A stretch of DNA of 64,000 nucleotides from Roseburia sp. (lineage in GTDB: Bacteria > Bacillota > Clostridia > Lachnospirales > Lachnospiraceae), in assembly GCA_017937095.1 (NCBI GenBank), contig JAGBEG010000010.1, positions 310,001 to 374,000 on the forward strand, given 5' to 3'. This document shows, piece by piece, positions 11,740 through 14,982 of this stretch (its first letter is position 1; each line of letters opens with the position of its first letter). The position numbers were made by a program, and so were the translations under genes. Below the pieces are notes generated by a model. That model was not told the origin of the DNA and searched no databases. It saw only the letters and a list, made by a program, of their open reading frames with translations.

Positions 11740-12930
11740 ATGCGGGAATTTCGCATTCAGGACAATGAGGCGGGACAGCGCTTTGACAAATATTTAAAGA
11801 AGCTTCTTTCCGAAGCGCCGGGCAGTTTTGTATACAAGATGCTGCGCAAGAAGAACATTACCTTAAACGGAAAGAAAGCGGACGGAACAGAGAAGCTTGC
11901 GGGCGGGGATCTGGTCAGGCTGTTTCTCGCGGATGACACCTTTGAGAAATTTTCGGGAAGGGATAAAGTTTCTGCGCGTTATGAGAGCCTTAAGAGCCTG
12001 GGAGAACCGGAAGGTACTGGAAGCTCTCCGAAGGAATTTCCGGGCGATCCGGAAGCTTCCTATAGTGCCTCGAAATGTACATTAAGCGGTTCAGAAGATA
12101 CATTAAATGCTTCGAAGAACGCATTAAGATGTTCAGAAGGTACATTAAGTTCATCAAAGAGCACATTAAGGGAATCGAAAGCTGCATCAACAAAGAAGAA
12201 TCCACGCACCATGCATGGTACATACGAGAGCGTCCTTCCGGTACTTTATGAGGATAACGACATCCTTATTGTAAACAAACCTTCGGGAATGCTTTCACAG
12301 AAGGCAAAGCCGACGGATCTTTCTGCGAACGAATACATCCTGCATTATCTGATTGAAAAGGGGGAACTGACCGAGGAGACGATGCAGACTTTTATGCCGT
12401 CTATTTGCAACCGGCTCGACCGCAATACCTCAGGGATTCTGATTGCAGGAAAGACCTTAAAGGGGCTTCAGGAGACGGCGGACGCTTTAAAGGAGCGCAC
12501 GGTTTTAAAGTATTACCGCTGTATCGTAAAGGGTGAACTGAACGAAAAGGCTTATATCAGGGGATGGCTCACAAAAGAGGAAAGGACGAATAAGGTGACG
12601 GTCTCTAAGGCAGCGCCGCAGGGAAAGGATGCACAGCCGATCGAGACGGAGTATCGTCCGGTTCATGTGAAAAACGGCTATACAGAGCTGGAAGTGCATC
12701 TGATCACCGGACGTTCCCATCAGATTCGCGCGCATCTTTCTTCTATCGGTCATCCGATTATCGGTGATCCCAAGTACGGAGATCAGAAGGTGAATGCATA
12801 TTTTCGAAGGGAATGTAAGATTACGTCTCAGATGCTTCATGCATACCGGATTGTGCTTGCCGGTCAAAGAGAGATTGTTGCGCCCTGCGGAGAAGAATTT
12901 GTGCGGGTGCGAAAGATGCTTGGATTCTGA
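11740..12930 (+). CDS. RluA-family pseudouridine synthase with repeat-bearing linker
   Basis: An S4-like N-terminal domain (residues 1-75: FDKYLKKLLSEAPGSFVYKM) is followed by a disordered linker, then the RluA catalytic domain from about 165 with LYEDNDILIVNKPSGML and the active-site NRLDRNTSGIL, and ends with GRSHQIRAHL. Such enzymes modify 23S rRNA or tRNA uridines; the specific site is unclear. The unusual part is the linker of about 75 residues (87-160), Ser-rich and containing five tandem 7-residue repeats. A second RluA-family gene (RluD type) lies at 47.0 kb. Confidence 0.88.
   Translation: MREFRIQDNEAGQRFDKYLKKLLSEAPGSFVYKMLRKKNITLNGKKADGTEKLAGGDLVRLFLADDTFEKFSGRDKVSARYESLKSLGEPEGTGSSPKEFPGDPEASYSASKCTLSGSEDTLNASKNALRCSEGTLSSSKSTLRESKAASTKKNPRTMHGTYESVLPVLYEDNDILIVNKPSGMLSQKAKPTDLSANEYILHYLIEKGELTEETMQTFMPSICNRLDRNTSGILIAGKTLKGLQETADALKERTVLKYYRCIVKGELNEKAYIRGWLTKEERTNKVTVSKAAPQGKDAQPIETEYRPVHVKNGYTELEVHLITGRSHQIRAHLSSIGHPIIGDPKYGDQKVNAYFRRECKITSQMLHAYRIVLAGQREIVAPCGEEFVRVRKMLGF
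12070..12174 (+). repeat. 21-bp in-frame tandem repeat, 5 copies, in RluA-type gene
   Basis: Five 21-bp units begin at 12070, 12091, 12112, 12133 and 12154. Each encodes a Ser-(Lys/Glu)-x-(Thr/Ala)-Leu-x-x heptad: SKCTLSG, SEDTLNA, SKNALRC, SEGTLSS, SKSTLRE. Ser-Lys and Ser-Glu units alternate, so the higher-order period is 42 bp. Lies in the linker between the S4-like and catalytic domains. Confidence 0.9.
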
Positions 12931-12963: not shown

Positions 12964-13494
12964 CATAATTCTTATTATGCCTATATAGCATACCTCACAT
13001 TCCGAATGGAGAATGGCTGCGGCGTTTCAGTCGCAAAATCCGGCATTTCTAGCGAGCCGTTTCACGCATCCTGTGATATTTCATGTCTTTCCAATGGTGA
13101 ACACTTCCGCCTGGATGTGTTCGTGGACGATAAGACAATATTTAAGCACTTTCATGCGCCGCTTGGCGGGCTTTCGCGCAAAACATAACCGCGTCATCCG
13201 ATGTTTGAGACATCATCTGCCACTCATTTTAATCGCAGATGGTGTCGAGTTTCGGATGACGCGGTTTTATCGTGATTTTGTAAGGAAGCCCCGCCTAGCG
13301 GCGCTAGGAAGTGCGCTCTATTGTCTTTCGCCCATCGAAACACATCGGCGGACTGTTCACGCAGTGCAAAGACACGAAATCCGATGCGTGAAATCCGGCT
13401 CGAAGAAATGACAGGATTTTGACTCCAATGAAAACGCCACATTCCATTCTCATTCTGGAATGTGGCATATGTTATGCGCATAATAAGAATTATG
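12964..13494. repeat. 531-bp imperfect palindrome (long inverted repeat) in convergent gap
   Basis: This fills the 612-base gap between two convergent genes. Its ends are a perfect 17-bp inverted repeat (CATAATTCTTATTATGC at 12964-12980, complement at 13478-13494). The arms stay alignable inward for about 240 bases: shared blocks include CACATTCC, AAAATCC, CATTTCT, TTTCACGCATC, GTGTCTTT and GCGCCGCT. At the centre CCGCGTCATCCG (13189-13200) pairs with 13253-13264, and GACATCATCTGC pairs with GCAGATGGTGTC with one G-U. Short open frames of 78-132 codons run through it on both strands but lack good ribosome sites and family resemblance. Could be a folded RNA, a non-autonomous mobile repeat, or two inverted copies of a family repeat. 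Confidence 0.85.
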
Positions 13495-14103: not shown

Positions 14104-14982
14104 ATGAACAGATGTAAGAAATGCGGCGCAGAGCTGGCGGAGGACGCGAAGTTCTGCAGTGTCTGCGGTACTGCGGCAGAGCAGGAAAAGAGCGCAGGCG
14201 CACAGGAAAGCGCTAATGGAGCAGAGCCAGAAGCACAGGTGTTCGGAGCGGGCACGCAGAATGAAGCAGCGGCGACGGAAGCACAGGTGTTCGGAGCGGG
14301 CGCGCAGAATGAAGCAGCGGCGACGGAAGCACAGCAGTTTGGGGCAGGCACACAGGCGAATGGAAGTCAGCAGTTTGGAGCAGGCGCACAGACGAACGGA
14401 AGTCAGCAGTTTGGAGCAGGCGCACAGATGAACGGAAATCAGCAGTTCGGAAACGGCGCACAGACGAACGGAAGTCAGCAGTTCGGAGCAGGTGCGCAGA
14501 TGAACGGAAATCAGCAGTTCGGAAACAGCGCGCAGGCGAACGGAAGTCAGCAGTTCGGAGCAGGCGCACAGTTCCAGCAGGCAGCGCCGAAGGAAACCGC
14601 AGCAGCGTATTACGCAAAGCAGCCGTATATGCCGCCGGCTGATGACGCACAGGCGAACAAGGGTGTGGCTGTCTGCGGATATTTTGGTCTGCTTTGGATC
14701 GTTCCGCTTGTTACAACGGCGAAGCATTCCCCATTTGCGAAGTTCCATGCAAATCAGGCGCTTATGGTATTCCTCACCTCGATCGCGACATGGGTTGCGG
14801 TGTGGCTTCTGAAACTGATTCTTTTCGCGCTTTTCTCATGGAGAGTATATGCTCTGACAAGATTTCTTTCTTTTGCGGCGGGTGTATTCACTCTGATTCT
14901 TAGTGTTGTAGGCATTGTATATGCGGCGCAGGGCAAGATGAAAGAACTTCCGGTCATCGGACAGTTCCATCTTATTAAATAA
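14104..14982 (+). CDS. Zinc-ribbon membrane protein with Gln/Gly/Asn-rich tandem repeats
   Basis: A 292-residue protein in three parts. Residues 1-25 are a zinc ribbon (CKKCGAELAEDAKFCSVCG). Residues 43-160 are low complexity with tandem repeats of a Q-Q-F-G-x-G-A-Q-x-N-G-S type. Residues 183-285 form a membrane domain with three hydrophobic helices and the start KGVAVCGYFGLLWIVPL, KFHANQALMVF, resembling the DUF4870/Tic20-like family. The zinc ribbon and repeats should be cytosolic, or the topology reversed; this is not determinable here. Similar zinc-ribbon plus DUF4870 proteins are common in Clostridia and of unknown function. It has its own promoter. Confidence 0.85.
   Translation: MNRCKKCGAELAEDAKFCSVCGTAAEQEKSAGAQESANGAEPEAQVFGAGTQNEAAATEAQVFGAGAQNEAAATEAQQFGAGTQANGSQQFGAGAQTNGSQQFGAGAQMNGNQQFGNGAQTNGSQQFGAGAQMNGNQQFGNSAQANGSQQFGAGAQFQQAAPKETAAAYYAKQPYMPPADDAQANKGVAVCGYFGLLWIVPLVTTAKHSPFAKFHANQALMVFLTSIATWVAVWLLKLILFALFSWRVYALTRFLSFAAGVFTLILSVVGIVYAAQGKMKELPVIGQFHLIK
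14230..14577 (+). repeat. Coding tandem repeats (48-bp x2 then 36-bp x about 7)
   Basis: Two 48-bp units start about 14230 (EAQVFGAGTQNEAAAT type); then 36-bp units start at 14329, 14365, 14401, 14437, 14473, 14509 and 14545, each coding 12 residues such as QQFGAGAQTNGS. Within the 36-bp part, GAGAQ and GNGAQ or GNSAQ versions alternate, giving a 72-bp super-period. Confidence 0.9.

What the first reader, a model, noticed from the sequence alone, without database searches (positions are those of the whole stretch)
12964..13494. 531-bp imperfect palindrome in a convergent gap, no convincing gene
Seen: perfect 17-bp terminal inverted repeat, arms alignable for about 240 bp each, and a paired centre with a G-U that keeps the fold. 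Left and right arm read as degraded versions of the same text on opposite strands. Inference: it is either a long hairpin RNA or a non-autonomous mobile repeat; as a bidirectional transcript block it would also suit its place between convergent genes. No target-site duplication was seen.
Basis: partly seen in the sequence, partly recalled or inferred. Interest (0 to 1): 0.7.

Follow-up and report, generated by a model that had tools for sequence, protein, structure and literature searches.

The report
Giant hairpin repeat between gene ends
A 531-base stretch between two genes of a gut bacterium is one copy of a family of giant hairpin-shaped DNA repeats found in several related genomes, most often where two genes end, and whose two halves keep matching each other as they evolve.

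Summary
The palindrome is real (531 nt, 211 pairs; RNA fold -282.5 kcal/mol, z -22.5) and not a one-off. The window's genome holds 7 full copies and one centre-deleted copy. At least 52 places lie in same-genus genome G035, whose length equals that of the Roseburia hominis A2-183 chromosome. Six full copies lie in Roseburia sp. SUG84, one in G082, about ten loci in Roseburia sp. bin_11_LilbubCat. Searches of 397 family genomes, phages, plasmids and Rfam gave no further member.

Copies lie mostly between convergent genes (41 convergent, 27 co-directional, 3 divergent of 71). In four related genomes the window's gap holds a short hairpin instead.

Arms stay 78-85% paired although copies of different genomes are 64-75% identical; compensatory changes are in excess. 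No consistent G-U preference on either strand appeared, so selection on one RNA strand is not supported.

Best reading: a non-autonomous, MITE-like giant palindrome that settles in or replaces terminator hairpins and whose hairpin form is maintained, probably at DNA level. No transposase or target duplication was found; mobility is inferred.

The parts
12964..13494 (.). whole palindromic element (window copy, locus L001)
   Evidence: fold z -22.5; one 91% identical copy on the same contig and five more full or near-full copies in the genome at 74-77% identity
12964..12980 (+). left terminal inverted repeat, 17 bp, CATAATTCTTATTATGC
   Evidence: its first 16 bases recur, with up to 2 mismatches, at ends of copies in this genome and in G071
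13478..13494 (-). right terminal inverted repeat, perfect complement of the left
12964..13186 (+). left arm
   Evidence: pairs with the right arm
13267..13494 (+). right arm
   Evidence: pairs with the left arm
13176..13276 (+). central 101-nt motif shared by the five genomes: two covarying stems, conserved internal loop and apical loop
   Evidence: alignment A1 of 36 copies
13202..13209 (+). TGTTTGAG, 5' side of the conserved internal loop
   Evidence: 6 of its 8 columns invariant, one nearly so, one T or C in A1; the pattern that picked the copies asks for it loosely: 60 of 63 copies found by blastn have it
13246..13253 (+). CGAGTTTC, 3' side of the conserved internal loop
   Evidence: CGAG invariant in A1, with the same caveat of selection by pattern
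13187..13266 (+). GC-rich apical hairpin flanked by AAAACATAA on the left and TTTTAT on the right; could act as a bidirectional terminator (inference)
   Evidence: stem; flanking A and T runs recur; not itself called by the simple scan, which reports three weak sites inside the element at 13260-13317
11740..12930 (+). upstream gene, RluA-type pseudouridine synthase, ends 33 nt before the element
   Evidence: PF00849
13543..13941 (-). convergent gene, DtxR-type metal-dependent repressor, ends 48 nt after the element
   Evidence: PF02742, PF01325

Best explanation
It is one copy of a family, which I found described nowhere, of giant (about 430-610 bp), non-coding, imperfectly palindromic interspersed repeats of Roseburia. 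Shown: dispersed copies that group by genome, bias to the gap between convergent genes, absence of the element with a short hairpin in its place in relatives, arm pairing retained while sequence diverges, and a conserved centre with covarying stems. Inferred: the elements spread as non-autonomous mobile DNA (a trans-acting transposase or recombinase, not found), insert in or replace the hairpin of an intrinsic terminator, and persist there because they can still end both convergent transcripts. The fold is kept mainly at DNA level, either because hairpin or cruciform DNA is the form that is mobilised, or because hairpin-templated repair keeps correcting one arm to the other.
For: Copies: 7 full + 1 centre-deleted in the own genome; 52 distinct full or near-full places in G035 from two searches that scored 40 of 99 and 40 of 104 candidates; 6 full and about 8 shorter in G071; 1 + 1 in G082; 9 matches of 150 nt or more and one of 106 nt in G481. 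Copies group by genome: 46 of 46 G035, 6 of 6 G071, 8 of 8 G481; the 7 of G000 include the G082 copy; support only 0.40 and 0.29 for G035 and G071. Place: 41 convergent, 27 co-directional, 3 divergent of 71 contexts called from longest ORFs, 2 more not placed; convergent and divergent gaps are equally many on a circular chromosome. Window locus: of 11 other loci carrying both genes I read 8 gaps, none with the palindrome, and G020, G035, G071, G078 have a short hairpin. Flanks outside the homologous part are palindromic at or above the 95th percentile of 1332 mismatched pairs in 17 of 37 copies. A full copy sits inside the centre of another in G035; short forms of the ends sit in terminator-like hairpins (L210, L213, L202). 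Pairing kept: arms 78-85% paired in 7 between-genome pairs that are 64-75% identical; two-sided arm changes keep a Watson-Crick pair in 91 of 104, 56 copies; central stems: 20 of 26 pairs with double changes, 191 such cells against 62 +/- 7 shuffled and 11-31 slid.
Against: No transposase-bearing relative: the one widely spaced inverted end-motif pair that I followed spans ordinary genes. No target-site duplication seen by eye; boundaries are fuzzy and copies diverged. A-tract plus matching GC stem on both sides was found in 14 of 37 copies (null 106 of 1332 mismatched, 10 of 740 shuffled), but only 5 of the 14 lie outside the shared part, and the window copy has none; it also has no terminator-like site in its flanks. 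27 of 71 contexts are co-directional, with all 4 placed G071 copies. Two own-genome loci are occupied at the same gene pair in G035: old vertical inheritance, repeated choice of one site, or chance. Pair counts lean towards pairing because pairs were defined on the copy in question (compare 443 to 228). Two of the five covariation measures are less decisive: pairs with a double change 20 against 16.2 (6 of 500 shuffles), pair types 45 against 41.2 (29 of 500).
Confidence: 0.55

Rival explanations
1. A structured non-coding RNA family: the long hairpin RNA, or its conserved 100-nt apex, is the product, and the dispersed copies are RNA genes.
For: Central stems covary while loops are conserved. 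In the centre, derived changes to G-T outnumber those to A-C 14 to 3, p 0.013.
Against: Over all paired columns of 37 copies G-T 403 and A-C 417 (inherited columns counted repeatedly); derived in the arms 70 and 100, p 0.026 the other way; consensus folds about equally good on both strands. No promoter-like site. Rfam: none at E up to 1 for the window copy; in 5 other loci two miRNA-precursor matches (E 1.9e-5 and 0.3) far below gathering, 42.8 of 140 and 25.4 of 90 bits.
Confidence: 0.15
2. Overgrown terminators: each hairpin grew in place by repeated insertion or inverted duplication at its apex (Russian-doll growth), with no mobile unit of this size.
For: Outer parts differ between G035 copies while the inner core is shared; conservation rises towards the centre in G035 and G481; nested copy; short forms in terminator-like loops.
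Against: In G000 and G071 conservation does not peak at the centre and the ends carry one shared motif. Centre-deleted copies show that short forms can also arise by decay.
Confidence: 0.13
3. Arm-to-arm correction only: the palindrome has no function, and quasipalindrome template switching during replication keeps the arms alike.
For: No consistent strand bias; template switching is reported to fix stem pairing (PMC8794818, abstract and start of the introduction).
Against: Pair-restoring changes are not significantly clustered (23 neighbours against 19.8 expected, p 0.21); the asymmetric loop TGTYTGAG/CGAG, in a relaxed form, is kept in 60 of 63 blastn-found copies.
Confidence: 0.15

Closest known systems
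YPAL / RU-2, Yersinia palindromic sequences (passages in PMC2229807; table rows in PMC2267715)
   Same: Intergenic, many copies, palindromic; targets span or adjoin areas of dyad symmetry (read). Overlap of targets with terminators is recalled, not read.
   Different: About 168 bp with target duplications of 3-26 bp (read); ours is 430-610 bp with none seen. No YPAL sequence was compared.
ERIC, NEMIS/Correia, RUP and other bacterial MITEs (passages in PMC2229807 and PMC10969869)
   Same: Terminal inverted repeats, intergenic, transcripts predicted as long stem-loops.
   Different: Described as about 100-200 bp; the table read lists target duplications and 5'-TA termini for several of them; neither was seen here.
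REP palindromes as insertion targets (passages in PMC1525189)
   Same: Often between convergent genes; insertion at the palindromy axis reported for ISRm22.
   Different: Units of 21-65 bases; here the inserted thing itself is the palindrome.
Integron attC sites (search listing only; details recalled)
   Same: A DNA hairpin whose structure and unpaired bases matter more than its stem sequence.
   Different: Much shorter, in cassette arrays served by an integrase (recalled); no integrase was looked for here.

Membership tests
Bacterial MITE | terminal inverted repeats | tested here: met
   17 bp perfect in the window copy; 16-base motif at ends of G000 and G071 copies; G035 copies have other ends
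Bacterial MITE | multiple dispersed non-coding copies | tested here: met
   coding examined in the 7 full own-genome copies
Bacterial MITE | target-site duplication | tested here: inconclusive
   none seen by eye in flanks printed; no systematic test; boundaries unclear
Bacterial MITE | related autonomous element with transposase | tested here: inconclusive
   none by end-motif pattern in G000 and G071 with up to 2 mismatches, one candidate pair followed; other genomes not searched
Bacterial MITE | empty sites in relatives | tested here: met
   window locus only, between species, not within one: G020, G035, G071, G078
YPAL | about 168 bp length | tested here: not met
   531 bp
YPAL | sequence homology | not tested
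   no YPAL sequence was fetched
Intrinsic terminator | GC-rich stem followed by T-tract | tested here: inconclusive
   apical stem followed by TTTTAT, but not called by the scan, whose loop limit is 8
Rfam structured RNA | score above a family's gathering threshold | tested here: not met
   window copy and five further loci

The most novel reading that the evidence does not exclude
A mobile element whose transmitted form is a giant DNA hairpin: selection acts on the folded DNA itself, with helices free to change if both sides change and specific internal loops read by an unknown recombinase, and it inserts into the apex of other hairpins (terminators, and even its own kind), so that hairpins grow like nested dolls.
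Probability: 0.18. Interest if true: 0.85.

Novelty: new variant of a known kind. Interest (0 to 1): 0.6.

Why it matters
Bacterial palindromic repeats are described as about 100-200 bp (PMC2229807, passage); this family is three to five times longer and present at 52 or more places in a genome whose length matches that of a human gut symbiont, yet the passages that I found in its genome paper (five terms) mention only CRISPR repeats. Long palindromes are expected to be unstable in bacteria (recalled), so their retention raises a testable question: what keeps both arms matched, selection for a folded mobile form of DNA, replication-linked correction, or a role in ending convergent transcripts. 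The set of dispersed and cross-species copies makes that measurable.

Tried and rejected
Strand-specific RNA as the main reading: rejected on G-T against A-C counts; the G-U excess in RNAalifold structures is predictor bias, similar on both strands. Single-arm RNA structure: only short stems, mean z -0.55 inward and -0.25 outward for 40 of 86 arms. Loops more conserved than stems over the whole element: no, 0.743 against 0.736, p 0.82; the contrast holds only in the centre. Coding: open runs not conserved in strand or frame in 7 copies, although open runs of the 37 copies are on the whole longer than in shuffled sequence. A 'flip' of outer arms between L001 and L002/L003, in note 1, was my error: loci are not reoriented (corrected in note 2); the context counts do not depend on it, and one search listed three copies in the other orientation. 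The '7 full copies' in G071 of note 3 is wrong; it is 6. Autonomous element on G071 contig C66: ordinary genes. Lagging-strand bias in G035: none evident (17+/14- and 15+/8-, two fragments included, halves split at mid-chromosome on the assumption that base 1 is the origin). Empty outer shell in G035 by exact pattern: none. Four pattern hits in other phyla (L132, L136, L142, L145) show no blastn similarity to the family: chance. Paper searches for the family: no title or abstract start in the listings describes it; subscription journals are mostly missing. On re-checking I lowered the main confidence from 0.60 to 0.55, because only 5 of the 14 terminator-stem hits lie outside the shared part and the loop motif was partly selected by pattern.

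Full report
Observation. The 531 nt at 12964-13494 form one imperfect hairpin with perfect 17-bp ends; the fold energy is far outside shuffled sequence as RNA and as DNA. It lies 33 nt after the end of an RluA-type gene and 48 nt from the end of a convergent DtxR-type gene. It has no Rfam match at E up to 1, no promoter-like site, and no terminator-like site in its flanks; three weak terminator-like sites lie inside it, where shuffles give 0.9. Three ORFs overlapping it have no Pfam match.

Other copies. The own genome (24 contigs) has 7 full or near-full copies, the best 91% identical to the window copy and the others 74-77%, and one that lacks the centre. Of 60 relatives searched with the window copy, only the own genome and G035 matched. 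With a G035 copy as query, 4 of 62 same-genus genomes matched: G000, G035, G071, G082. With a G071 copy, 1 of 397 genomes of the family (334 genera) matched, the own genome; in the rows shown only 2 candidates per genome were scored, so weak members could be missed. G035's single contig has 3,592,125 bases, the length given for R. hominis A2-183 in the abstract of PMC4645204; the identity rests on that number. Two searches that scored 40 of 99 and 40 of 104 candidates give 52 distinct full or near-full places there. G071 has 6 full and about 8 shorter copies, G082 one full and one centre-deleted. An exact pattern for the centre found 17 stretches in the genome collection: 5 in Roseburia sp. 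SUG84, identical to G071 loci, 8 in Roseburia sp. bin_11_LilbubCat (G481), and 4 in unrelated organisms without similarity. G481 has 9 matches of 150 nt or more, one of 106 nt and three short ones, not counting self-inverse hits. No match in phages or plasmids by blastn at 1e-5, none in viral contigs by the exact pattern.

Place. Gene orientation, called from the longest ORFs beside each copy, gave 24 convergent, 12 co-directional and 2 divergent of 38, and 17, 15 and 1 of 33 more, with 2 further copies not placed. Convergent and divergent gaps are equal in number on a circular chromosome, so 41 to 3 is a strong lean. At the window's own locus, 20 loci with the DtxR-type gene were fetched; besides the own one, 11 also carry the RluA-type gene. 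I read the gap in 8 of these 11 and none holds the palindrome: G020, G035, G071 and G078 have a short hairpin, in the last three flanked by A and T runs like an intrinsic terminator; three gaps (L076, L079, L082) extend at most about 32 nt beyond the matches, and G034 has a 700-nt stretch without it. In some copies the DNA outside the shared part continues the palindrome: 17 of 37 by flank alignment. With a stricter rule (A-tract, GC stem, matching stem, T-tract) 14 of 37 pass, only 5 of them clearly outside the shared part (L004, L007, L041, L063, L067), and not the window copy. One G035 copy sits inside the centre of another. Short forms carrying only the ends sit in terminator-like hairpins (L210, L213, L202); they may be remnants or empty precursors. 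Two own-genome loci share both flanking genes with occupied G035 loci, and a third shares one; with so many occupied gaps that may be chance.

Evolution of the fold. Arms pair at 76-85% of columns (37 copies). Between genomes the elements are 64-75% identical over the central 420 nt while arms stay 78-85% paired (7 pairs of copies). Close copies (over 90% identical) differ mostly by one-sided changes; two-sided changes exceed independence at all distances with more than one pair of copies. [quoted passage not shown] 225 of 9246 paired positions were broken; of 1631 mismatched ones 200 were restored and 88 became other mismatches, where chance would restore one in three. These counts lean towards pairing because the pairs were defined on the copy in question. 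Restored pairs were not significantly clustered. The centre was aligned for 36 of the 68 copies found by a relaxed pattern (71 searched; 32 similar G035 copies left out): 23 invariant columns and 20 of 26 pairs with double changes. The pattern itself asks for a relaxed TGTYTGAG...CGAG, so part of this invariance is by selection; 60 of 63 copies found by blastn have it, the 8 G481 copies were found through it. Three of five covariation measures lie beyond all 500 shuffles, two less so.

RNA or DNA. If one RNA strand were selected, G-T should far exceed A-C on that strand (established knowledge). All paired columns give 403 and 417, but these counts repeat inherited columns. Derived changes give 70 and 100 in the arms and 14 and 3 in the centre, which disagree in sign. 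Consensus folding favours neither strand clearly. The centre may therefore be read as RNA (for example as a terminator), the arms hardly.

Mechanism. I favour a non-autonomous mobile palindrome that settles in terminator hairpins between gene ends, where harm is least, and stands in for them. The steps shown are dispersal, place, an alternative short hairpin at the window locus in relatives, and retention of pairing. The steps inferred are mobilisation in trans, choice of hairpins as target, and termination. No transposase, target duplication or transcript was seen.

Comparison. By kind it is nearest to YPAL, ERIC and NEMIS, described as about 100-200 bp (PMC2229807 passages); its length, the conserved centre and the long maintained arms set it apart. 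It is filed as a new variant of that kind, with target duplication and transposase inconclusive.

Noticed in passing
12079-12170: A 42-bp tandem repeat (2.2 copies) inside the RluA-type gene encodes a Ser/Lys/Leu-rich repeated stretch before the catalytic domain.
   Followed up: no
14230-14571: Tandem repeats of 48 and 36 bp inside a zinc-ribbon gene, coding a Gln/Gly/Ala-rich repeat.
   Followed up: no
L161:1152-2068 (G035 96651-97567): A full copy nested in the centre of another copy of opposite orientation.
   Followed up: partly
L213:560-640, L202:1460-1560, L210:3910-4090: Terminator-like hairpins with only a 16-bp or roughly 100-140-nt end piece of the element in the loop.
   Followed up: partly
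L211:430-520: A roughly 90-nt miniature form with both end motifs (2 mismatches each) in the own genome.
   Followed up: no
13084-13089 and 13132-13137 (left arm): Each arm keeps TGTCT and AGACA nearly invariant, able to pair within the arm as well as across.
   Followed up: partly
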